The position numbers were made by a program, and so were the translations under genes. Of a DNA stretch of 34,830 nucleotides, positions 321 to 34,830 are shown in pieces (within the stretch, counting starts at the first letter, position 1; each line of letters starts with the position of its first letter). Below the pieces are notes generated by a model, which made no database searches, was not told the origin of the DNA, and was given only the letters and a program-made list of their open reading frames with translations. Source of the DNA: Nocardioidaceae bacterium (lineage in GTDB: Bacteria > Actinomycetota > Actinomycetes > Propionibacteriales > Nocardioidaceae); assembly GCA_030655315.1 (NCBI GenBank), contig JAURVT010000054.1, positions 1 to 34,830 on the forward strand, given 5' to 3'.

Positions 321-1727
321 ATGTCCGTCCAGCCACCGCTCGAGCGCATCCTCGTCAGGGGAGGCACCGTGCTGACGATGGACCCGTCCATCGGCGATCT
401 CGTCGACGCCGACGTGCTCGTCGAGGACGGCCGCATCGTGGCCGTCGCGCCCGACCTCCAGGTGACCGACGCACGGGTGGTGGAGGCGGCCGGCAAGGTC
501 GTGCTGCCCGGGTTCGTCGACACGCACCGCCACACCTGGCAGTCGGTGATCCGCAACATCGGCTCGGACTGGACGCTAGGCCAGTACTTCACCGGGATCC
601 ACTTCGGCCTCAGCCGCTACTACCGGCCGCAGGACACCTACATCGGCAACCTGCTCGGCGTCGTGGAGGCGCTCGACAGTGGCATCACGACCCTGCTCGA
701 CTGGTCGCACAACCTGGAGACGCCCGACCACTCCGACGCGGCCGTGCAGGGTCTGCTCGACTCCGGCGCCCGATGCGTCTTCGCGCACGGGGGCGGGGCG
801 AGCATGTGGGCGGTCCCGAGCAGCCTGCCGCACACGCGTGACGTCCTGCGCCTGAAGGAGCAGTACTTCGGCAGCGACGACCAGCTCGTGACCATGGCCT
901 TCGCCGCCCGCGGCCCGCAGTTCGCACCGGGGGAGACGACGCTCGCCGACTGGGCGCTCGCCCGCGAGCTGGGCACCCGGATCACCGTGCACGTGGGCGA
1001 CGGCGAGTGGGGGAGGACCGGTCCCGTCCGCTGGATGCACGAGCACGGACTGACCGGGCCCGAGGTCACCTACGTGCACTGCAACACCATCGCCGACGAC
1101 GAGATGCAGATCATCGCGGACACCGGCGGATCGGCGTCGGTGTCGGCCGACATCGAGACGCAGATGGGCCACGGCTGGCCGGCGACGGGCCGGCTCCTCG
1201 ACGCCGGTGTGCGTCCGAGCCTGTCGATCGACGTGTGCACCTCCAACGGGGGCAACATGTTCAACGCGATGAAGACCACCATCAGCACGCAGCGGGCGCT
1301 CGACAACGCCGCGGTCACCGCCGCCGACGAGCAGGTGGGCGTCCGGCTCACCTGCCGCGACGTGCTGGAGTTCGCCACGATCGAGGGGGCCCGCGCCACC
1401 GGCCTCGACGCCGTGACCGGCAGCCTCACCCCGGGCAAGAAGGCCGACCTCGTCGTGGTCGACACCACCGACCTCGCCACGACGCCGTTGAACAACCCCC
1501 ACGGCGCGCTCGTCTACTCCGCGCACCCCGGCCTGGTGCAGACCGTCATGGTCGACGGCCGGATCGTCAAGGACCGTGGCCGTCTGGTCGACGTCGACGT
1601 CGACCGCATCCGTCGCCTGGCGACCGAGACCCGCGACCACCTGTTCGAGCAGGCCGCGCGGAGCGAGTCCATCCCCGACGCGCGGGCCGACGGCACCTGG
1701 ATGCCCTCGGCGGCGTCCGCCGGCTGA
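321..1727 (+). CDS. Metal-dependent amidohydrolase (SsnA/AtzA/TrzA type)
   Basis: The 468-residue protein belongs to the cytosine-deaminase/chlorohydrolase branch of the amidohydrolase superfamily, cytoplasmic enzymes that remove amino or chloro groups from N-heterocycles. The N-terminal beta-sandwich strand (residues 8-45) leads into the metal motif D67-T-H69-R-H71. Further expected ligands are H224 (TVHVGDGEWG), H253 (YVHC) and D304 (SIDVCTSNGG). The usual GTDG aspartate motif is replaced by SIDV, so this is not a standard atrazine or guanine deaminase. Length fits the family. An AGGAG site sits six bases before the ATG. It converges on the large catabolic operon, which carries a close paralogue at 9455-10852 with the same motifs, so the two probably act on related substrates. 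The exact reaction cannot be assigned; a lactonase or other hydrolase role is possible. Confidence 0.88.
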   Translation: MSVQPPLERILVRGGTVLTMDPSIGDLVDADVLVEDGRIVAVAPDLQVTDARVVEAAGKVVLPGFVDTHRHTWQSVIRNIGSDWTLGQYFTGIHFGLSRYYRPQDTYIGNLLGVVEALDSGITTLLDWSHNLETPDHSDAAVQGLLDSGARCVFAHGGGASMWAVPSSLPHTRDVLRLKEQYFGSDDQLVTMAFAARGPQFAPGETTLADWALARELGTRITVHVGDGEWGRTGPVRWMHEHGLTGPEVTYVHCNTIADDEMQIIADTGGSASVSADIETQMGHGWPATGRLLDAGVRPSLSIDVCTSNGGNMFNAMKTTISTQRALDNAAVTAADEQVGVRLTCRDVLEFATIEGARATGLDAVTGSLTPGKKADLVVVDTTDLATTPLNNPHGALVYSAHPGLVQTVMVDGRIVKDRGRLVDVDVDRIRRLATETRDHLFEQAARSESIPDARADGTWMPSAASAG

Positions 1728-9458: not shown

Positions 9459-10852
9459 CGGGGAACCCGGTGGATGCCGGGGATCCACGAACCGCCGGTC
9501 CGGGCGTCGGCGGTGCTGGGTCGGGCGAGGGCCCGCTCGAACAGGACGTCACGGGCCGACGTCGCACGGGTCCGCACGGAGTCGAAGTCCGTCCGCGTCA
9601 ACCGGCCGTCGCGCTTGAGGAACTCGCCGCGGACCATCACCGAGTCGACCAGCCCGGGGTGGCCCGAGTAGACGACGGCGGCGGCCGGGTTGTTCAGGGG
9701 GGTCATGGCGGCGTTGTCGCACCGCAGGAGGATGAGGTCGGCGTCCTTGCCCGGCGTGATGCTGCCGGTCTTGTGGTCCAGCCCCAGGGTCCGCGCGCCC
9801 TCGATCGTCGCGAACTCGATGACGTCCTCGCACGAGAGACGCACCGAGGACTGCTCGCCGGGGGTCTTCTCCGCGGCGTTGTCGAGCGCCCGCTGGATGC
9901 CGATGGTGGCCTTCATGGCGTTGAACATGTCGCCGCCGTTGGAGACGCACACGTCGACCGAGAGCGAGGGTCGCACCCCCACGTCGAGCAGCTTGCCGGT
10001 GGCCGGCCAGCCGAGTCCCATCTGGGCCTCCACGTCGGCCGACACCGAGGCGCTGCCGCCGGAGTCGGCGATCATCTGGAACTCGTCGGGCGCGAGCGAG
10101 CAGCAGTGGACGTGCGTCACCTTGTCCGAGAGCATCCCGTGCTCGTGCATCCAGGCGACCGGCCGGTTCTTGCCCCACTCGCCGTCCCCGTTGTGCACGG
10201 TGACCCGCGTGCCGAGCTCCTGGATGAGCTTCCAGTCCTCGAGCGCGACCTCGGGGACGCTGAACTGCGGTCCTCGCAGGGCCAGGGCCATGGTGAGCAG
10301 CTGGTCGTCGGTGGAGAAGTACTGCTCCTGCAGGCGCAGCACGTCGCGGGAGTGGGGGACGGTGCTGGGCAGCTGCCACATCGTCGCCCCTCCTCCGTGG
10401 GCGAAGACCGAGCGCATCCCCGAGTCGAGCAGCGCCTGGACCGCCGCGTCGCCCTGCTCGGGCGAGTCGATGTTGTGCGACCAGTCGAGCAGGGTGGTGA
10501 TGCCGCTGTCGATGGCCTCGATCGCGCCCAGCAGGTTGCCGAGGTAGGTGTCCTCGGCGCGGAAGTCACCGCTCAGCCCGAGATGCACGCCGGTCAGGTA
10601 CTGCCCGTGCGTCCAGTCCGAGCCGATGTGGCGGATGAGCGCCTGCCACAGGTGTCGGTGGGAGTCGACGAAGCCGGGCATCACGATCATGTTGCTCGCG
10701 TCGACGACCTCGGCGTCGGAGGCCTCGATCCCGAACCCGACCTCGCGGATGGTGCCGTCCTCGACGAGGACGTCGGCGCCCTCGAGCTGGCCGAGCTCTC
10801 GGTCGACGGTCAGGACGGTGCCGTTGCGGATGAGGATGCGCTCTGCGCTCAT
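9455..10852 (-). CDS. Metal-dependent amidohydrolase 2, paralogue of the 321-1727 product
   Basis: This 465-residue amidohydrolase aligns along its whole length with the protein at 321-1727. It has the same metal motif D63-S-H65-R-H67, the GSDWTHGQYLTGVHLGLS segment, H220 in TVHNGDGEWG, H249 in HVHC and D300 in SVDVCVSNGGDMFNAMK. It is thus a diverged duplicate with complete predicted metal ligands. It lies directly after the transporter genes (43-base gap, GGAG site before the ATG), consistent with acting first on the imported compound. The C-termini differ little. A deaminase or dechlorinase on an N-heterocycle is likely by family, but not proven. Confidence 0.9.
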   Translation of the reverse strand: MSAERILIRNGTVLTVDRELGQLEGADVLVEDGTIREVGFGIEASDAEVVDASNMIVMPGFVDSHRHLWQALIRHIGSDWTHGQYLTGVHLGLSGDFRAEDTYLGNLLGAIEAIDSGITTLLDWSHNIDSPEQGDAAVQALLDSGMRSVFAHGGGATMWQLPSTVPHSRDVLRLQEQYFSTDDQLLTMALALRGPQFSVPEVALEDWKLIQELGTRVTVHNGDGEWGKNRPVAWMHEHGMLSDKVTHVHCCSLAPDEFQMIADSGGSASVSADVEAQMGLGWPATGKLLDVGVRPSLSVDVCVSNGGDMFNAMKATIGIQRALDNAAEKTPGEQSSVRLSCEDVIEFATIEGARTLGLDHKTGSITPGKDADLILLRCDNAAMTPLNNPAAAVVYSGHPGLVDSVMVRGEFLKRDGRLTRTDFDSVRTRATSARDVLFERALARPSTADARTGGSWIPGIHRVPR

Positions 10853-10895: not shown

Positions 10896-13376
10896 TCAGG
10901 AGGACTGCGGGGGCGTCGGACGGGTGCGGAACGCGATGGCGGTCGCGACCAGCACGAGTCCTCCGGGCAGCCAGAACTGCCAGGCCTGGTTCAGGCCGAG
11001 GAAGTTGCTGGCGTTCGAGAGCATCGCGAGCAGGATCGCGCCGGGGACGATGCCGAGGTAGGAGCCCCGGCCGCCGTAGACGCTCGCGCCCGCGAGGACG
11101 ACGACCGTGATGCTCGACAGGGTGTAGGTGACGCCCTGGGTGGGGTCGCCGATGCCGATCTGCCCGGCCACGACCACGCCGCCCAGACCTGCGAGGACCG
11201 AGGAGACCACGTAGGCGCCGAGGACGGTCCGACCGAGGGGGACGCCCAGGCGGGCCGCCGCTCCGGGGTCCGAGCCGGCCGCGCGCAGCGCCATCCCCGT
11301 CGGGTTGCGCAGCACGCGCTCGAGCAGCACCGCCAGGACGATGAGCACCACGAAGAGCAGCGGCACGGGTCCCACCGCGCTGATGACCGAGCTCATCAGC
11401 GCGGGCTCGATGAGCCCACCGGGGGTGTCACGCAGGAGGAGCGACACGCCCTGGACGGCCACGAACGTCGCGAGCGTGGCGACGATGGGTGGCAGCTGCA
11501 GCCCCAGGACCAGCAGGCCGTTGAGGAGCCCGACCCCTGCGGCCACGGCGAGGGCGATGACCACGCCCACGGCGGCACCCCCGGCACCGCCGTCGGTCGC
11601 CGTGTAGGACAGCACGACGACGGTGAGTCCCACCACCGGTCCGGCGGAGAGGTCGATCCCGCCCGTCATCACCACGGTGAGCTGGCCGAGTGCCACCAGG
11701 CCCAGGGCGGCGCTGGCGATCAGGAGCGACTGGACGTTGAGCTCGCCGAGGAACGTGGGGGAGCGGACGGTGGTCACGGCCGCCAGGACGACGGCCAGGA
11801 GCAGCAGGACGGCTCCGGGCAGGCTGTCGCTGCGGCGCATGCGCGCGCCACGGCCACGGCCGCGGTCGGTCGAGGTCGGGTCGTCCGTCGGACGGTCCCG
11901 CACGGCGCGCAGGGCGCTGCCCGTGATCTTCTCCTCGGTGACCTCGTCACCGCGCAGCGTCTGCACGGCTCGCCCGCCCGAGAACACCACGACCTCGTCG
12001 CAGAGCCCGGCGAGCTCGGCGGCGTCGGAGGACAGCACGACCACGGTCGAGCCGTCGTCGGCCCGCTCGCGCAGCAGGTCGTAGATCTCACGCCTCGCGC
12101 CGACGTCGACCCCGCGCGTGGGCTCGTCGCAGAGCAGGAGGCGGGGCTCGGTCATGATCGCTCGGGCGAACAGGACCTTCTGCTGGTTGCCGCCCGAGAG
12201 CGTGCCGATGGGGGCGTCCGTGGACGCCGCGCGGACCGCCGTCGCGGTCATGCCCGTGGTGACCGCCGCCCGCTCGAGCCGCGGCGACACGATGCCGCCG
12301 CTGCCCAGCGCACCGAGGTGGCCCACCGTCATGTTCTCGCGCACCGACAGGGCGGGGAACAGTCCCTCGACGGCTCGGTCGCCGGCGATGTAGGCCACCC
12401 CGGCCGAGGTGGCTCGGCCCGGGCGCGAGAGGTCGACCGGGTCGCCGTCGATCCTGACCGTGCCCGAGTCGGGTGGGTTGAGGCCGGCGAGGGCGCGGAG
12501 GAAGGCGCGCTGGCCGTTCCCCTCGACGCCCGCCAGCCCGACGACCTGGCCCTGGGCGCAGGTCAGCGACACGTCGCGGAAGCCGGGACCGCCGAGCTCG
12601 CCCACGACCACCCGGTCGTCCCCGGTGGTGGCGTTCTTGGGCGGGAACACCGCGCTCAGGGCGCGACCGACGACCATGGTGACGATGTCGTCGTCGGTGA
12701 GGGTGGCCGTGGGAGCCGTTCCCCTGACGCGTCCGTCGCGCAGGGTGGTGATGCAGTGGGCCACCCGCCTCACCTCGGCGATGCGGTGGGAGATGTACAC
12801 CACGGCGGTGCCCGACTCCACGAGCTCGGCGATGAGGCCGAACAACCGGTCCACCTGGTCGCTGGTGAGCGACTCCGTCGGCTCGTCGAGCACCAGGACG
12901 CGGGGCTGCTGGGCCAGTGCCTTCGCGATCTCGAGCAGCTGGCGCTCGGCGGTCCGGAGCTCGGTGGCCCGCGCGTCGAGGTCGAGGTCGAGCCCGACGG
13001 TCTCCAGCCACCGCGCGGCCCAGGCGCGGGTGTCGTCGCCGTCCTCGCGACGGGGTGAGGGCACCGCGAGCACGAGGTTCTCGAGGACGGTCAGGTCGGC
13101 CACGACCGCAGGATTCTGGTAGACGACGGCGATACCGAGCTCCTGGGCCCGCGCGGCCGAGGCCGACCCGAGCACGTGGCCGGCGATCTCGACCTCCCCG
13201 TGGTCGGGGGAGAGGCTGCCGGCGGCGACACCCATCAGCGTGCTCTTGCCGGCCCCGTTCTCGCCGACGAGCCCGTGCACCTCCCCGACCGCGACCTCGA
13301 GGTCGACGTCCTGCAGTGCGACCGTGGTGCCGAACGTCTTGGTGATGCCGGCGAGTCGCAGGGCGACCTCACTCAT
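10896..13376 (-). CDS. ABC importer: tandem ATPase domains fused to a permease
   Basis: The 826-residue protein fuses an RbsA-like double ATPase (residues 1-495) to an RbsC-like permease (about 515-826); these are usually two polypeptides. The first ATPase has Walker A GENGAGKST (38-46), Q-loop YQNP, a degenerate signature LRTAERQ, Walker B VLVLDEPT and switch histidine in SHR. The second has the degenerate GVEGNGQ P-loop usual for this class, an intact LSGGNQQK signature and CDEPTRGVDVG. An Arg-rich linker precedes about eight to ten hydrophobic segments, including the GGIDLSAG motif of this permease family. GVEGNGQ resembles nucleoside importers of the YufO type. With the separate permease at 14552 it could form a heterodimeric pore. 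The ATG overlaps the binding-protein stop by eight bases. Confidence 0.92.
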   Translation of the reverse strand: MSEVALRLAGITKTFGTTVALQDVDLEVAVGEVHGLVGENGAGKSTLMGVAAGSLSPDHGEVEIAGHVLGSASAARAQELGIAVVYQNPAVVADLTVLENLVLAVPSPRREDGDDTRAWAARWLETVGLDLDLDARATELRTAERQLLEIAKALAQQPRVLVLDEPTESLTSDQVDRLFGLIAELVESGTAVVYISHRIAEVRRVAHCITTLRDGRVRGTAPTATLTDDDIVTMVVGRALSAVFPPKNATTGDDRVVVGELGGPGFRDVSLTCAQGQVVGLAGVEGNGQRAFLRALAGLNPPDSGTVRIDGDPVDLSRPGRATSAGVAYIAGDRAVEGLFPALSVRENMTVGHLGALGSGGIVSPRLERAAVTTGMTATAVRAASTDAPIGTLSGGNQQKVLFARAIMTEPRLLLCDEPTRGVDVGARREIYDLLRERADDGSTVVVLSSDAAELAGLCDEVVVFSGGRAVQTLRGDEVTEEKITGSALRAVRDRPTDDPTSTDRGRGRGARMRRSDSLPGAVLLLLAVVLAAVTTVRSPTFLGELNVQSLLIASAALGLVALGQLTVVMTGGIDLSAGPVVGLTVVVLSYTATDGGAGGAAVGVVIALAVAAGVGLLNGLLVLGLQLPPIVATLATFVAVQGVSLLLRDTPGGLIEPALMSSVISAVGPVPLLFVVLIVLAVLLERVLRNPTGMALRAAGSDPGAAARLGVPLGRTVLGAYVVSSVLAGLGGVVVAGQIGIGDPTQGVTYTLSSITVVVLAGASVYGGRGSYLGIVPGAILLAMLSNASNFLGLNQAWQFWLPGGLVLVATAIAFRTRPTPPQSS

Positions 13377-14517
13377 CCCAACCGCCCTCGCCTCGGGTGA
13401 TCTTCATGATCTGCTCGTCCGTGACGTCGTTGGACAGCAGGGCGTCCTCGGCGGCGCCGCTGTCGCAGCGAGGGGCCATGTCGTCGCCCGCGGTCGAGTC
13501 CTCGAACAGCGGCAGCTGGACGACGTCCTCGGGGCTCAGCAGCTCGTCCTCGGGGATCTTGACGCCCTGCGCCTTGGCGACGGCCGCCTGCACGGCGATC
13601 CGCGCGGTCCAGTTGCGGGCCGACGACGTCGCGAGCTGCGCCTCGGGGTTGGAGGCCGAGATCTTCTCCCAGTCGCACGCCAGCGCGTTGGCCTCGAGGC
13701 TGGCGATGGACGGCACGGTGACGTCGGCGGTCTGGAAGGCCTTGATGATCCCGGTGGTCATCAGGCCCTCGTCGGAGATCACGCCGTCGACGTCGGGGTT
13801 CTGCGAGAGGAACGCGGCCACGGCCTGCTGCGCTGCTGCCGGGTCCCAGTTGCCCTCGATCCACGTGTCGTCACCGGACGCGAGGTCGATGCTCGAGGAG
13901 CCCAGGCCCTCCTTGATGCCCTCCAGCTCGTCCGCGGAGACCTGGTTGCCCGCCGGTCCGCCGACGAAGATGACCTTGCCCCCGTCGGGGAGCTGCTTGG
14001 CCATCCACTCGCCCCACAGCTTGCCGTCGTGTCGGTGGTCGGAGTCGACGTAGGAGAGGTAGTCGGTGCCGGCCTTGCCGCCCGGGTCGGCCGCCCACGG
14101 CACCACCTGGACGCCTCGCTGCGTGGCCGAACGGATGCCGGGCAGCTCGGCCTCGCCGCTGCCACCGGCGTCGGGGATGATTACGACCGCCTTCGCGCCC
14201 TGGGAGACCATGCTCTGAAGTCCCGAGATGGCCTGCTGCAGGTCGAACTTCGCGTCCACGGTCTTGACGTCGGTGATGTTCGGGCACTCCTTGAAGCCCT
14301 GCAGCGCCTGCTTCTTGGACTCCTTGGACCAGCCGTTCAGGCCGCCGCCGTCCTGGAAGCCGACCACCAGCTCCTTGGTGCCGCACCAGGCCGGCCCATC
14401 CCCGCCGGACGCGCTCGTCGACGAGTCGGTGCCGCCACCGCACCCGGTGAGGACGGCCGCGGCCAGGGCTCCGGCCGCCAGGATTCCGACGGGGCGACGC
14501 AGGGTGTGGGGGTGCAT
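13369..14517 (-). CDS. ABC transporter substrate-binding lipoprotein
   Basis: The 382-residue precursor has a signal peptide with lipobox L-T-G-C26, followed by a Ser/Thr/Gly linker. The mature part is a type I periplasmic-binding fold of the sugar/ribose group: VVGFQDGGGLNGWSK, the AISGLQSMVSQGAKAVVIIP strand-helix and a DVDGVISDEGLMTTGIIKAF segment. It would be membrane-anchored outside the cell and deliver the pathway substrate to the permeases encoded on either side. GGAGG lies before the ATG. The ligand cannot be named; several aromatic residues (W63, W140, W241) may stack on a ring. Confidence 0.9.
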   Translation of the reverse strand: MHPHTLRRPVGILAAGALAAAVLTGCGGGTDSSTSASGGDGPAWCGTKELVVGFQDGGGLNGWSKESKKQALQGFKECPNITDVKTVDAKFDLQQAISGLQSMVSQGAKAVVIIPDAGGSGEAELPGIRSATQRGVQVVPWAADPGGKAGTDYLSYVDSDHRHDGKLWGEWMAKQLPDGGKVIFVGGPAGNQVSADELEGIKEGLGSSSIDLASGDDTWIEGNWDPAAAQQAVAAFLSQNPDVDGVISDEGLMTTGIIKAFQTADVTVPSIASLEANALACDWEKISASNPEAQLATSSARNWTARIAVQAAVAKAQGVKIPEDELLSPEDVVQLPLFEDSTAGDDMAPRCDSGAAEDALLSNDVTDEQIMKITRGEGGWDE

Positions 14518-30915: not shown

Positions 30916-31269
30916 CGGCGGCAGACCGACCTGATCGACCTTGCTCGCCCCGCGGCAGAGCTCCGTCGAGCGGTGCCGATGTCGCCGTGAGAGACCTCGC
31001 TCGGAGGCCGCCCCGTTCGAGGTCCCTTCACCGGACTTGTCACCGGACGGGTCCTACGGGACGGTCGGGCGTGCACGGCCGTCTTGTTGATGCACATGGT
31101 GGCCCTCATCGAGCTTCGGAGCCGACGCATGCCGAGCCGGCGTGCACCCAGATGCGGGGACCGGGCATCGCTCTGCGCCTGTCGCCCGCCGCCGGTGGGG
31201 TCTCCGCCGTGGTCGCGCCGTGTGGATCTTCGGGTCGGATCGCGCGTGGTCAGTGGTGGCGGACTTTGC
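30916..31269. other. Intergenic region, nothing recognised
   Basis: This 354-base stretch between the reductase and the convergent kinase-like gene holds a short direct repeat (CACCGGAC at about 31030 and 31042) but no gene, hairpin or element I can support. Confidence 0.4.
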
Positions 31270-32127
31270 TCACGCGTCGAGAACGGGCGCGGTGATCCGG
31301 GTGAGCCAGTCGTCCAGCCGTTCGAGCTGGGTCGGCGAGCCGAACATGGGCTTCATCCCTGGTGGTGGCAGGAATCCGACGGCGTCCATCACCAGCCAGT
31401 ACCGGCCGGGCCGGGTCCTGGTGAGCGCCGCGTAGGCCGAGACGAAGTCGAGTGCCGGCTCCGGCCCGTGGGCCAGGGCCAGGTTCGTCGCGGCGTGGGC
31501 CGCGTCGAGCCAGGCTGGGCCGGTGGAGGTCTCGACCCAGTCCACCACGCCGGAGATGGAGCCGTCTTGCCAGAGCAGGTTGCGGTGGCTGAAGTCGCGG
31601 TGGAGGAAGGTGGGCTCGAACGTCGGTGGCTCGTCGTCGAGGATCGAGAACGCCCGCGCCCATGACGCCGGTTGGTTGGTCCAGGCCGGGACGAGCCGCT
31701 TGGCCTCCCACGCCCACGACTGGTACTCACGAAACGCCTCGGCCGGTCGGACCTCGTGGATGAGCACGAGCATCTCGGCCATGGCGGTGACGTGGTCGCC
31801 GTCCATCTCGGGCACCGGCACTCCGGGGAGGCGTGACATGAGGTGTGCCGACACACCGGTGCCGACGCCCTCGGCGTCGAGCCCCAGGGTCACCGGCGCA
31901 GGCACGGCGGTCGCACCCAACACCACCTGGGCGGCGCGCTCGCGCGCTGTCAGTGCCGGCCCGTGGCTGCGCCAGGGCTCCTCGGTCATCAGTCGCAGCA
32001 CCGAGCACCCACCTGAGCGGTGCGTCAAGGCGAGCATGGTGGACGTGAGACCTCCGACGAGCGCGTGGGTCTCGACGATGGGCTCACCGACCACACCTTC
32101 GGCCCATCTGATCGCTCGATCGTGCAC
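31270..32127 (-). CDS. Aminoglycoside-phosphotransferase-like small-molecule kinase
   Basis: The 285-residue protein has the APH fold. The catalytic loop is FLHRDFSHRNLLWQ (H-x-D-x4-N), followed by GVVDWVETSTGPAWLDAAH with the metal-binding aspartate of the DFG-like site. The N-terminal lobe has the nucleotide strand GGCSVLRL. Such proteins phosphorylate antibiotics, choline, sugars or other hydroxyl compounds with ATP. The N-lobe is too divergent from known resistance enzymes to claim drug resistance. It starts at a GTG (32127) and is transcribed alone. Confidence 0.85.
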   Translation of the reverse strand: MHDRAIRWAEGVVGEPIVETHALVGGLTSTMLALTHRSGGCSVLRLMTEEPWRSHGPALTARERAAQVVLGATAVPAPVTLGLDAEGVGTGVSAHLMSRLPGVPVPEMDGDHVTAMAEMLVLIHEVRPAEAFREYQSWAWEAKRLVPAWTNQPASWARAFSILDDEPPTFEPTFLHRDFSHRNLLWQDGSISGVVDWVETSTGPAWLDAAHAATNLALAHGPEPALDFVSAYAALTRTRPGRYWLVMDAVGFLPPPGMKPMFGSPTQLERLDDWLTRITAPVLDA

Positions 32128-32445
32128 CCCGTGACCCTAGGGCCCGCCTTCCGCTGAGGATCCGATGCGGCCCGGCATCGGTGCCAGGCCTCCAGTACCC
32201 CGTATGTGGTTCTCGCTGTGGTCACGTTCCGCGTGAGGTTCCCGCTACGGTCTCGTCATCGTGCCGCCCGGCACCCGCACCCCTGCGCCTGGAGCAGGCT
32301 GCCGGCTCCTCCGCGGTTGAGTCGCTGGAGTCCACCGGGTTAGGAACCCGCTGACGCGGGGGCCGCGTGCGTGAGACCGTGCGCCATGAATGTTTCGGGC
32401 AGGGTAAGCGAGCTACTGGAAGCCCATCGGCTGTAGACAGCAGCG
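32128..32445. other. Intergenic region with paired hairpins at the island boundary
   Basis: No gene seen. The region holds the left 20-base repeat (32223-32242) and two hairpins: GGAGC/GCTCC (32291-32309, nine-base loop) and CGGGTT-AGG-AACCCG (32336-32350, three-base loop). It ends with a possible -10 element, TAGACA (32434-32439), just before the GTG at 32446, which would make that mRNA almost leaderless. No tRNA cloverleaf can be drawn. Confidence 0.4.
32223..32242 (+). repeat. Left copy of a 20-bp direct repeat flanking the right-hand island
   Basis: CACGTTCCGCGTGAGGTTCC matches 34690-34709 at 19 of 20 bases in the same orientation, 2467 bases apart. A chance match of this length in 35 kb is unlikely. 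The pair encloses three genes and a remnant, so it may mark ends of an inserted segment. Confidence 0.6.
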
Positions 32446-32952
32446 GTGTCGCCCCACTACGACGAGGTGTTCCACACCGTCGTAGCCCGCGCTGAGCAGG
32501 ACGAGTCCATTGGCAAGGCCGAGATCGGTGCGCTGGTCCCATGGAAGCGGCTTAACGCCAGTACCAAGTGGGCCTTGGCACTGATGCAGACACCCGACGG
32601 TGAGGTCCGCGCCGCCACCGGCGCGGCGTACGCGGCCGCACGGAACCGCGGCAAGTCCATCTTCGACGCGGCTTTCACTGCTCGCGGTGCTCTTTCGGCA
32701 CTCCCAGGGTTCGGCAGTGGCGATGCGCTCGCCTCGGCGATCATCTGTGCGCTCGCACCGACCCGGATGGCCGTCTACGACCGCCGGGCGCAAGCCGGCT
32801 TACAGCGATTGGAGTTGACCCTGACGCCGAAGTCGGGGCGTCACGCGCGCTACATGAAACTTCTCGAGCAGTTGGGTGCCGAGGTGGCTGCGGCGGGTAC
32901 GCCGATGTCGGCGCGGGAGATCGACACCGCCCTGTATCAACTCGGCGGCTGA
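32446..32952 (+). CDS. HhH/OGG-fold DNA-glycosylase-like protein
   Basis: The 168-residue protein has, in its centre, GALSALPGFGSGDALASAI followed by ALAPTRMAVYDRRAQAGL. This is the helix-hairpin-helix (LPGFGSG) and following aspartate (VYD) pattern of the OGG-fold/HhH-GPD DNA glycosylase superfamily. The protein is much shorter than a true glycosylase and the usual catalytic lysine of OGG1 is not evident, so activity is uncertain. Such proteins occur as accessory genes near defence or integrated elements. The GTG at 32446 is the first start after an in-frame stop and has no ribosome-binding site, consistent with a nearly leaderless mRNA. Confidence 0.65.
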   Translation: MSPHYDEVFHTVVARAEQDESIGKAEIGALVPWKRLNASTKWALALMQTPDGEVRAATGAAYAAARNRGKSIFDAAFTARGALSALPGFGSGDALASAIICALAPTRMAVYDRRAQAGLQRLELTLTPKSGRHARYMKLLEQLGAEVAAAGTPMSAREIDTALYQLGG

Positions 32953-32974
32953 CCATCAGCGAGCTGGCCCTTCC

Positions 32975-33745
32975 TCACTGGTCGGGCCGGGCACGAACCG
33001 CCGTGGACAACAGCCGTAGCGGGTCCCAGTCCACCAGCTGACTGCCGGTCCGACCCGGCAGGTCGTCTCGGGCGTGTCCCAGAGCGACCCGGACTGCGGG
33101 GGTCGTGATCACGTAGGCCCAACATGTGAGGTCGTGGCCCAGGTCAACCCACGAACGGTCGCCGATTGGAGCACCAGAGCCTACGCGGAGCCAGGCGCGG
33201 TCGACCCGATCGCAGTCGGGGAACAGTGAGCCGCATAGTCGGGCAGCGAGGGCGTCTGTGAAAAGCCGTCGACGTTCCCCGTCCACCCCTCCGGCGGCAA
33301 TAGCGTCGGAGAGATCCTCGACAAGTGCGGCGGCCTCGTTCGCGGTGCGGGTGTCGACGTCACTAAGCGGCGGAGCGCCCTCGAGGCGATGAAGGCGGCG
33401 GCGGATCCGTGAGGCCCAGTTGCTGCTGCGCCCGAGAAGTCTGTGTGCGACCGGTGACGGGACCAGGCCGGCCCGCAGCGACACCGCGTACAGGTCCGAT
33501 CCCGTGACGCCGTCTGCATGTGGGTGGCGCACCAGGCCGTCCAACCCAGCTGGCGCACGACTGTCCGCCCGGTAGAGCGCACCGAAGAATTCGAAGCCGT
33601 CTTTTCGGTGCCAGTCGAGGAGTCGGCCGGCGCGTTCAGACGAGGCGGCGAGGACCGCGCGTTCTGGCACCTCCCATCCGGCCGGCACCCGCCAAGTGCG
33701 CCCGTCGCCAAAGGGGCACGGCGGTCCGGGGGCGGAGGTCGGCAT
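32975..33745 (-). CDS. Uncharacterised island protein
   Basis: The 256-residue protein is soluble. Readable segments are FEFFGALYRADSRAPAGLDG, ASDLYAVSLRAG-like GSDLYAVSLRAGLVP, and a C-terminal part with DRAWLRVGSG and LGHDLTCWAYVITTPAVRVAL. The segment around GSDLYAVSLRAG recalls the DUF6308 group, but the match is loose. No catalytic motif is clear. It converges on the OGG-fold gene with a 22-base gap. The ATG at 33745 lacks a strong ribosome-binding site. Confidence 0.55.
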   Translation of the reverse strand: MPTSAPGPPCPFGDGRTWRVPAGWEVPERAVLAASSERAGRLLDWHRKDGFEFFGALYRADSRAPAGLDGLVRHPHADGVTGSDLYAVSLRAGLVPSPVAHRLLGRSSNWASRIRRRLHRLEGAPPLSDVDTRTANEAAALVEDLSDAIAAGGVDGERRRLFTDALAARLCGSLFPDCDRVDRAWLRVGSGAPIGDRSWVDLGHDLTCWAYVITTPAVRVALGHARDDLPGRTGSQLVDWDPLRLLSTAVRARPDQ

Positions 33746-33807
33746 CGGTTGATGGTGTCGTACCGCACCGACAGTCCCGGTCGTGCAGACTCGGGGTTCG
33801 CGAGCTC

Positions 33808-33915
33808 GTGGAGGTCTACGTATTCGGCAGACCGGTCTACATCATGACGAACGACGGCTACATACAGTTTATGGCTCGTGTCGCAGGGCTGAATGTCGTC
33901 GCCTTATCGGACTAG
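33808..33915 (+). pseudogene. Coding remnant or very small gene
   Basis: A frame from a GTG at 33808 reads VEVYVFGRPVYIMTNDG then YIQFMARVAGLNVVALSD and stops in a CTAG shared with the opposite gene's stop. Its codons (GTA, ATA, TTT, TTA) are AT-richer than the surroundings and the residues look like real protein, faintly like the end of a PIN-type nuclease. Upstream in the same frame the sequence turns Arg/Ser-rich, so only the 3' end seems preserved. Confidence 0.3.
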
Positions 33916-34610
33916 GAGCGACGCCGGGCCAGCCCACTCTGATACGTCCAGATGGCGTGATCGAGAGCGTTCGGTGAGACCTCCAGCACGGAGGCTGCCC
34001 CGGTTACCAGTTCGACCGCCCGACCTAACGAAACGTCCCGCGGCCGCAGCCCCGTGGCCCTCGCAATAAATCTGACTATCATGCGATCGGGCTTTACGCC
34101 CGGCACGCCAGCGAGCATTTGGACGTAGTGCCAGGTGGTTGCGGACCGCTGACCGACGACGCCGGTCCAGGCTCTTCGGACTTCCTCATAGGCCTGGGGG
34201 GCGTCGCCAAGCCGGCGGAGATCCTCAGCTTGGTTGACGCCGAGCGATACTAACGCTTCAGCCACGAGCCTGATCGCCTCAGACTTCAATGGAGCACCTC
34301 GCTGCGTTGACGTCTTATTGTGGTTCTTGACCATGTCAGCCCAACCAGCCGAGCCACCAACCTCCTCGAAGGTGTGAAGCAGGTCGGACGCCGAGTCGGC
34401 GTTCGGCTCGCGGCCATGTGCGCTCTGGTAAGTCCGATACTGCGAAAGCACGTTCACAACGGCGACGTACTGGACGCCAGTCGACTGGATCGAGTCGATC
34501 ACGCACAGGGCGAGTGAGTCGGGATAGCCAGTCGGGACCTTGAAGGTCGTCGGGTCACCGAGCTGCATTCGGATCGCCTGGGTCAGCGCATCGATATTGG
34601 CACTGGTCAT
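33912..34610 (-). CDS. HhH-type protein, possibly glycosylase-related
   Basis: The 232-residue protein resembles a family often labelled only as hypothetical. An N-terminal segment PDSLALCVIDSIQSTGVQY precedes VVNVLSQYRTYQ; the C-terminal half has SATTWHYVQMLAGVPGVKPD and RMIVRFIARATG, a helix-hairpin-helix (GVPGVKPD) followed by a helix, as in HhH-GPD proteins. No catalytic lysine/aspartate pair can be assigned with confidence. Codon use is less GC-rich than in the catabolic region, in line with transfer. It is the second HhH-like protein of this island. The ATG at 34610 is the only sensible start. Confidence 0.65.
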   Translation of the reverse strand: MTSANIDALTQAIRMQLGDPTTFKVPTGYPDSLALCVIDSIQSTGVQYVAVVNVLSQYRTYQSAHGREPNADSASDLLHTFEEVGGSAGWADMVKNHNKTSTQRGAPLKSEAIRLVAEALVSLGVNQAEDLRRLGDAPQAYEEVRRAWTGVVGQRSATTWHYVQMLAGVPGVKPDRMIVRFIARATGLRPRDVSLGRAVELVTGAASVLEVSPNALDHAIWTYQSGLARRRS

Positions 34611-34830
34611 GCGCTAGTTGTACCTGGCCGGAAGGTTGTTGTCGCAAAGGTGTTCAGGTGGGAAGGCCTCCGCGCGCTTGGCGGATGTGCACGCTCCGCG
34701 TGAGGTTCCTCAAGCGGTTCCGTGCGCCAGGAGCGTGTGGGTACGAAGCGAGGTCGACTGTTTGACCTGAGGTTGATCTGACGCAGAGGGGTCGGCGTGT
34801 GCATTGCGGCCACCGTCGGAACGCTGTTGC
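34611..34830. other. Right-hand edge of the window, no gene seen
   Basis: These 220 bases contain the right copy of the direct repeat (34690-34709) and presumably the promoter of the HhH-type gene. No coding region is supported up to the end of the window. Confidence 0.4.
34690..34709 (+). repeat. Right copy of the 20-bp direct repeat flanking the island
   Basis: CACGCTCCGCGTGAGGTTCC differs from the left copy (32223-32242) at a single base. The sequences outside the 20 bases are unrelated, so the similarity is confined to the repeat, as expected of an attachment-site duplication or a transposition footprint. Confidence 0.6.

What the first reader, a model, noticed from the sequence alone, without database searches (positions are those of the whole stretch)
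32223..34709. Repeat-bounded mini-island with two HhH/glycosylase-like proteins
Direct repeats with one mismatch in 20 bases enclose an OGG-fold-like protein, an unrecognised protein, a coding remnant and a second HhH-type protein, with lower-GC codons. Base-recognising folds in a small mobile segment suggest recognition of modified or foreign DNA, possibly anti-phage defence. No integrase is visible in the window.
Basis: partly seen in the sequence, partly recalled or inferred. Interest (0 to 1): 0.6.

Follow-up and report, generated by a model that had tools for sequence, protein, structure and literature searches.

The report
Foreign gene patch among intergenic repeats
A 2.5-kb stretch of foreign genes, including one intact gene with a DNA-glycosylase fold and one broken gene, lies between two copies of a palindromic repeat that is scattered through this bacterium's genome; it is probably an ordinary patch of acquired DNA, but the intact gene belongs to an uncharacterised family also carried by plasmids and by phages whose DNA contains uracil.

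Summary
The direct repeat is real (19/20; 0 of 150 shuffles reached it) and the segment is compositionally foreign (GC3 0.73-0.79 against 0.94 in 25 other genes). It is not an island with a private repeat pair: the repeat belongs to a dispersed, intergenic palindromic family (22 copies found here; also in 4 of 24 other genomes scanned), and the right copy begins a 141-bp sequence repeated identically at another contig's end. Of the two 'glycosylase-like' genes, P0003 (33912-34610, minus) is intact, with a predicted HhH-GPD fold and an invariant candidate catalytic Asp. P0001 (32386-32952, plus) carries an in-frame stop at codon 17, and its fold could not be confirmed. P0002 is an orphan. The two families share no plasmid record, and in the one relative found with both they lie 1.38 Mb apart. 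P0003 relatives occur on 32 plasmid records and in the uracil-DNA phages AR9/PBS1; P0001 relatives lie mostly near ends of Streptomyces linear plasmids. Best reading: acquired accessory DNA lodged at a repeat, with one probably functional glycosylase-fold gene. Defence is possible but unproven.

The parts
   Evidence: 60.6 bits with model R1, of which it is a training member
32386..32952 (+). P0001 reading frame: ATG 32386, in-frame TAG at 32434-32436, remaining 168-aa ORF from GTG 32446; homologues continue through this point, so the gene is broken or N-terminally truncated
32975..33745 (-). P0002, 256-aa orphan ORF; only a sub-threshold similarity to DUF6308 (E 0.017)
33808..33915 (+). 35-aa coding remnant (GC 0.54), no relative found in Pfam, PHROGs or plasmids
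33912..34610 (-). P0003, intact 232-aa protein with predicted HhH-GPD fold; invariant D175 in the position of the catalytic Asp
   Evidence: 20.1 bits
34690..34830 (+). 141 bp identical to C5:20473-20613; both contigs end here, so probably the start of a multi-copy sequence that the assembly could not cross
31270..32127 (-). left neighbour, outside the segment: APH-type phosphotransferase, with similar DNA in several relatives

Best explanation
The segment 32243-34689 is a small patch of horizontally acquired accessory DNA lodged at a copy of a dispersed intergenic palindromic repeat. The repeat is a place where recombination joined foreign and resident DNA; it is not the att site of an autonomous element. 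Shown: the repeat family, the foreign composition, an uninterrupted repeat-plus-flank arrangement elsewhere in the genome, and the in-frame stop in P0001. Inferred: that acquisition went by recombination within the repeat. The one intact recognisable gene, P0003, most likely encodes a monofunctional HhH-GPD-type DNA glycosylase. It would flip a base out of DNA and cleave its glycosidic bond with D175; the substrate base is unknown. Relatives on plasmids and phages suggest a role in conflicts between genetic elements or in repair in mobile replicons. That last step is inference.
For: Repeat family: 22 copies at 27 bits or more in G000 on contigs C5, C8, C29, C33, C51, C53 (15 of them trained the model), and at least one in 4 of 24 other genomes, against a ceiling of 25.0 bits in the other 20; 23 of 23 listed copies on C5, C8, C29 and C51 lie outside genes called by my script. 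Uninterrupted arrangement: C5:20447-20494 is a full repeat followed directly by the TCAAGCGG... sequence that follows the right repeat in the window. Foreign composition. Sporadic genes. P0003 fold: AF2 mean pLDDT 83.5, pTM 0.81; 49 of the 50 rows shown by VIA-align are DNA-glycosylase superfamily chains, best Z 12.2, rmsd 4.8, 190 aligned (the 50th is the queuine salvage enzyme DUF2419); the 15-row profile gives 3 PDB hits, all OGG-type lyases, E 0.02-0.1; D175 invariant in 15 of 15 and aligned with the Asp of the VDTHIFR stretch of E. coli Nth. Mobile relatives: 32 plasmid records; 6 Bacillus phage records (AR9, PBS1, Goe21), labelled N-glycosylase or DNA glycosylase in 4 of 6.
Against: No same-genus genome was in the set to show an empty site; the right flank ends at the contig end; the C5 arrangement has a different left flank, so it is not the same locus before insertion. 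The hhalign comparison with Nth is far below significance (probability 0.4%); Foldseek alone found nothing at E<=0.001; the smaller 7-row profile hit only two unrelated PDB chains; no Pfam or NCBIfam family matches P0003, and of 7 family members one reaches HHH_5 at E 0.47. One search warns that helical proteins can give Z up to about 13 without kinship; the argument rests on nearly every shown row being one superfamily. Substrate and activity are untested.
Confidence: 0.6

Rival explanations
1. The segment is a discrete mobile island that inserted as one unit at a repeat and carries a two-gene defence module of base-recognising proteins.
For: 20-bp direct repeats at both ends, foreign composition, uninterrupted repeat-plus-flank form elsewhere in the genome. 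Relatives of P0001 lie near an Mrr-type nuclease (L062), a type IIG restriction-modification gene (L064), a KAP/PifA-like NTPase (L141) and a GajA/OLD-like ATPase (L140, one gene between); a P0003 relative lies beside an ISP-type restriction enzyme (L069).
Against: The repeat is dispersed, not private. P0001 is interrupted by a stop. The P0001 and P0003 families share no plasmid record, and in G204 lie 1.38 Mb apart. PADLOC 0 of 5. The 10 neighbour proteins scanned were picked by eye, from 7 of the 21 plasmid neighbourhoods viewed, 1 chromosomal and 2 viral loci, with no control; 3 of the 10 had no PADLOC hit.
Confidence: 0.15
2. The repeats are a REP- or MITE-like transposable family and the segment was captured between two insertions by its transposase.
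For: Short palindromic intergenic repeats, partly in tandem (29-bp period, 8.6 units in G095); 87 of 96 stem cells paired over 16 distinct stems, with double changes at one of six pairs.
Against: No Y1 REP transposase (PF01797) in G000, G004, G063, G095 or G204, the genomes with repeats; 1 of 23 genomes searched has one. Pairing is not above a column shuffle (854 of 5000 shuffles reach it). No transposase family among the segment ORFs.
Confidence: 0.12
3. The right boundary is not the end of the segment: a multi-copy element (for example an insertion sequence or a group II intron) inserted beside a repeat, and the reader's pair is a repeat plus that element's flank.
For: 34690-34830 and C5:20473-20613 are 100% identical and both contigs stop there; the stretch GTGCGCCAGGAGCG near 34721 resembles the 5' end of group II introns (recalled motif, not tested by any search).
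Against: Rfam finds nothing at gathering thresholds or at E<=5 in 31000-34830, though only about 110 nt of such an element would be present; no match in plasmids.
Confidence: 0.13

Closest known systems
HhH-GPD DNA glycosylases (MagIII 1pu7, EndoIII, MutY, archaeal Ogg 3fhg)
   Same: P0003: match over most of the length of an all-helical model; an invariant Asp in the expected place
   Different: No significant sequence match to a curated family; only one cysteine in P0003, so no Fe-S cluster of the EndoIII kind (sequence); at the place of the catalytic Lys of Nth there is no Lys in the alignment, so a monofunctional enzyme is expected (roles of Nth residues recalled)
AR9 gp109 / PBS1 gp306, DNA glycosylase of uracil-DNA jumbo phages
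   Same: Homologous over 84% of P0003 at 30% identity, E 9e-20; AR9 gp109 is annotated as endonuclease III/AlkA family enzyme
   Different: Phage-borne, in AR9 in a run of genes behind an annotated early promoter; no substrate given in the records
Brig1/Brig3 antiphage DNA glycosylases
   Same: Would work alike if P0003 excises modified phage bases
   Different: Brig3 belongs to the uracil-DNA-glycosylase superfamily and Brig1 is said to derive from it (passages of PMC13160076), another fold; P0003 has no shown antiphage effect
REP/RAYT-type repetitive extragenic palindromes
   Same: Short intergenic palindromes, dispersed and partly in tandem
   Different: No RAYT-type (PF01797) transposase in the genomes that carry them

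Membership tests
HhH-GPD fold superfamily (P0003) | all-helical HhH-GPD fold | tested here: met
   AF2 model pLDDT 83.5; 49 of 50 shown VIA-align rows glycosylase superfamily, Z 8.2-12.2, mostly 182-200 residues aligned; a predicted model, not a solved structure
HhH-GPD fold superfamily (P0003) | hairpin followed by conserved catalytic Asp | tested here: met
   D175 invariant in 15 of 15, paired with the Asp of Nth in an alignment that is itself not significant
HhH-GPD fold superfamily (P0003) | base-excision activity | not testable with these tools
   needs biochemistry
Pfam/NCBIfam glycosylase sequence families (P0003) | score above curated cut-off | tested here: not met
   no family for P0003 at E<=1; among 7 members only HHH_5 at E 0.47 and PNK3P at 0.011, one member each
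HhH-GPD / OGG-like (P0001) | fold | tested here: inconclusive
   single-sequence model pLDDT 52.5; profile searches and hhalign against Nth without support; a motif LPGFxxGDALASA...AVYDRR is conserved
integrase-driven genomic island | private att repeats | tested here: not met
   repeat dispersed in 22 found copies
integrase-driven genomic island | recombinase gene in the element | tested here: not met
   no recombinase family among the segment ORFs; the rest of the genome was not searched for one
integrase-driven genomic island | empty site in close relatives | tested here: inconclusive
   no same-genus genome in the set; segment not found in 57 relatives, but the corresponding site was not found either
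REP/RAYT | intergenic palindromes | tested here: met
   23 of 23 listed copies outside called genes; 87 of 96 stem cells paired
REP/RAYT | RAYT (Y1) transposase | tested here: not met
   none in the five repeat-bearing genomes
integron cassette array | attC sites and integron integrase | not tested
   considered because some repeats follow genes; attC boxes not seen by eye, no formal scan or integrase search made
Known anti-phage defence systems (PADLOC) | hit of a segment protein to a defence model | tested here: not met
   0 of 5 window proteins at E<=1
Brig antiphage glycosylases | uracil-DNA-glycosylase superfamily fold | tested here: inconclusive
   the shown structural matches are HhH glycosylases; the UDG fold is not listed, which is not an exclusion

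The most novel reading that the evidence does not exclude
P0003 belongs to an unrecognised HhH-class of conflict glycosylases carried by plasmids and phages, an independent counterpart of the UDG-class Brig enzymes. In uracil-DNA phages such as AR9/PBS1 the homologue could attack a base that the phage itself lacks, such as thymine in host DNA, while plasmid and chromosomal members attack modified bases of invading phages.
Probability: 0.1. Interest if true: 0.75.

Novelty: new member of a known kind. Interest (0 to 1): 0.33.

Why it matters
If P0003 is an active glycosylase, a family found on plasmids of Actinobacteria and Bacillus and in uracil-DNA jumbo phages would become a concrete candidate for base-directed conflict, testable with single-gene assays. 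The dispersed palindromic repeat is a caution: short near-perfect direct repeats around foreign genes need not mark a mobile element.

Tried and rejected
Integron attC cassettes: considered because some repeats follow a gene on the same strand and because C5:12750-13241 and 13242-13712 look like a duplicated gene-plus-repeat unit. The repeat does not show attC boxes by eye. C5:1-1093 and C8:1-460 are alike except for a GNAT-carrying stretch of about 670 bp in C5; its left end lies in a repeat copy but its right end about 46 bp before the next copy, which is not clean cassette excision. REP/RAYT: no transposase. Group II intron near 34721: Rfam silent, left open. Exact 22-nt repeat core in genome contigs: 0 hits; contig-end sequence: 0 hits. 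Viral-contig relatives: P0001 none; P0003 none with one sequence, 6 loci with the alignment. P0001 in phages: none. P0002: no plasmid or phage hit; in 395 other phylum genomes 12 reach E<=0.01 per genome, best 2.8e-4, which I treat as chance. The two families compared with each other: probability 0.3% and 0.5%. P0003 matches a PHROG of unknown function at E 1.7e-15 and P0001 one at 4.7e-4, which names no function. Stem covariation: not above shuffles (my first count was in the wrong register and is discarded). The VIA search with the P0001 model is not used because the model is poor. The neighbour scans used 10 proteins each, chosen by eye, no control.
Full report
Where it lies. The window is contig C51 of a 4.18-Mb, 57-contig genome. 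From the sizes of related genomes I infer the order that holds Nocardioides-like bacteria, but no call names it. The relatives search returned no other genome of its genus. The finding sits at the very end of the contig.

The repeat. The direct repeat at 32223-32242 and 34690-34709 is real: 19 of 20 bases match, and in 150 dinucleotide shuffles of 31000-34830 the best 20-mer pair reached 18 at most. But it is part of a longer unit of about 48 nt, with the stretch GGTTCCCGCTGTGGTCACGCTCCGCGTGAGGTTCC best conserved, which contains the hairpin TCACGC-TCC-GCGTGA. A covariance model of 15 copies, used on 25 genomes, finds 22 copies at 27 bits or more in this genome (contigs C5, C8, C29, C33, C51, C53; the 15 training copies are among them; only 150 candidates per genome were scored), and at least one in G004, G063, G095 and G204; in the other 20 genomes the best score was 25.0 bits. 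The right-hand copy of the window scores only 20.1 bits because its left half is missing. On C5, C8, C29 and C51, 23 of 23 copies that I listed, three weak and three partial ones included, overlap no called gene (genes called by my own script, score above 10, P0002 and P0003 added by hand; copies on C33 and C53 were not checked). In G095 the units stand in tandem with a 29-bp period, 8.6 copies, and its copies at 27 bits or more lie between 1.83 and 2.02 Mb of a 4.06-Mb chromosome. Stem pairing holds in 87 of 96 cells over 16 distinct stems, with double changes at one of six pairs, but a column shuffle reaches that in 854 of 5000 trials, so covariation proves nothing.

The right boundary. 34690-34830 is 100% identical to C5:20473-20613, and both contigs end there. 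At C5 an uninterrupted, full repeat precedes the same sequence. In form this is what the window would look like without the segment, which is the best evidence here that the 2.47-kb segment was inserted at a repeat. It is not the same locus, because the left flanks differ.

The genes. The segment has low GC, and GC3 of 0.79, 0.74 and 0.73 against 0.94 (SD 0.02) in 25 other window genes that my codon score had picked. In 57 other genomes no match to it is longer than 49 bp (five candidates scored per genome). P0001: the other rows of the alignments have N-terminal extensions; in the window such an extension is readable in frame from ATG 32386 but is cut by TAG at codon 17. The remaining ORF from GTG 32446 may or may not be made. 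P0002 has no convincing relative and only a sub-threshold DUF6308 hit, E 0.017. The 35-aa remnant at 33808-33915 matched nothing in Pfam, PHROGs or plasmids. P0003 is intact and aligns over its whole length with its relatives.

P0003 fold. With six sequences AlphaFold2 gives pLDDT 83.5 and pTM 0.81. Foldseek gives no match at E<=0.001, with a 3-methyladenine glycosylase first at 0.17. VIA-align over 1000 chains puts glycosylase-superfamily chains in 49 of the 50 shown rows, MagIII first with Z 12.2, rmsd 4.8, 190 aligned. The tool warns that helical proteins can reach such Z by chance; the uniformity of the list is what persuades. By sequence, a 7-row profile hit two unrelated PDB chains at E 0.29 and 1.8, while a 15-row profile hits three PDB sequences, all OGG-type lyases, at E 0.02-0.1. 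K173, D175 and R180 are invariant in 15 of 15, and D175 aligns with the Asp in the VDTHIFR stretch of E. coli Nth, in an alignment that is not significant in itself. That this Asp is catalytic in Nth is recalled.

P0003 relatives. Of 196 other genomes of the family, 8 have one at E<=0.001. Among plasmids 32 records have one, in Rhodococcus, Bacillus, Paenarthrobacter, Mycobacterium, Gordonia and others. Among phages 6 records, all Bacillus phages (AR9, PBS1, Goe21); AR9 gp109 is annotated as an endonuclease III/AlkA family enzyme and lies in a run of genes behind an annotated early promoter. AR9 and PBS1 contain uracil in place of thymine (passages of PMC8150378).

P0001 relatives. 2 of 196 other family genomes; 19 plasmid records, 18 of them Streptomyces. 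In 10 of those 18 the gene lies in the outer 10% of the half-length of the record (binomial p 2e-6; 9 of 13 after dropping five near-duplicates; the records are not independent; linear topology was seen for 11, the rest assumed). In two (L065, L138) it is the next gene, 7 nt on, after an ATPase in a run annotated TnsA-like, Mu transposase and ATPase; in L065 that ATPase matches Pfam TniB, while the TnsA-like protein matched no Pfam family. Others lie by helicases or restriction-type genes; of the 12 P0001 plasmid neighbourhoods viewed, several show nothing of the kind. Its fold remains open: the model is poor and profile searches gave no support.

Do they work together? No sign of it. The organism counts and accessions leave no shared plasmid record (one family is on 18 Streptomyces and one Arthrobacter record, the other on no Streptomyces and on a different Arthrobacter record). 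In G204, which has both, they lie at 1.90 and 3.28 Mb of the same contig.

Defence. PADLOC hits none of the five window proteins. Some relatives have restriction-type neighbours, but I chose those by eye and ran no control. Antiphage glycosylases are known: Brig1, Brig2, Brig3 (abstract and passages of PMC13160076; PMC11078745 seen in a listing). By those passages Brig3 is of the UDG superfamily and Brig1 is thought to come from it, so P0003 would be a different class if it did the same. I found no paper that holds both 'HhH-GPD' and 'defense island' and none on this repeat in Nocardioides; those are narrow searches of an open-access library.

Verdict. A real but ordinary feature: acquired, partly decayed accessory DNA at a dispersed repeat, with one interesting intact gene. 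The interest lies in the P0003 family, not in the island.

Noticed in passing
contigs C5, C8, C29, C33, C51, C53 of G000; G095 C1:1.83-2.02 Mb: Dispersed 29-48-nt intergenic palindromic repeat; in G000 the copies at 27 bits or more on any one contig share one orientation and sit on six contigs; in complete genome G095 they cluster near mid-chromosome, partly in tandem.
   Followed up: partly
C5:1-1093 against C8:1-460 (L048, L031): About 93% identical stretches that differ by about 670 bp carrying a GNAT gene; the left end of the difference lies in a repeat copy, the right end about 46 bp before the next copy.
   Followed up: partly
C5:12750-13241 and 13242-13712 (L030): Tandem 88% duplication of a short coding fragment (VOC-like by eye; first copy without a Pfam hit) together with a repeat copy.
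   Followed up: no
L065, L138 (Streptomyces linear plasmids): P0001 homologue follows the ATPase (TniB in L065) of a TnsA-like/Mu-transposase/ATPase run, 7 nt on: a possible fourth gene of a Tn7-like module.
   Followed up: partly
plasmid records H1-H9, H11-H19: P0001 relatives lie close to the ends of Streptomyces plasmids far more often than expected for even placement.
   Followed up: partly
window 34721-34830: Contig-end sequence GTGCGCCAGGAGCG... resembles the 5' end of a group II intron (recalled motif); present at two contig ends.
   Followed up: partly
L153:2902-3612 (phage AR9) and L154:2402-3112 (PBS1): Uracil-DNA jumbo phages carry a P0003 homologue annotated as glycosylase; in AR9 behind an annotated early promoter.
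   Followed up: partly
window 342-1571 and 9614-10843: Inverted pair of about 1.2 kb at 75% identity within the window.
   Followed up: no
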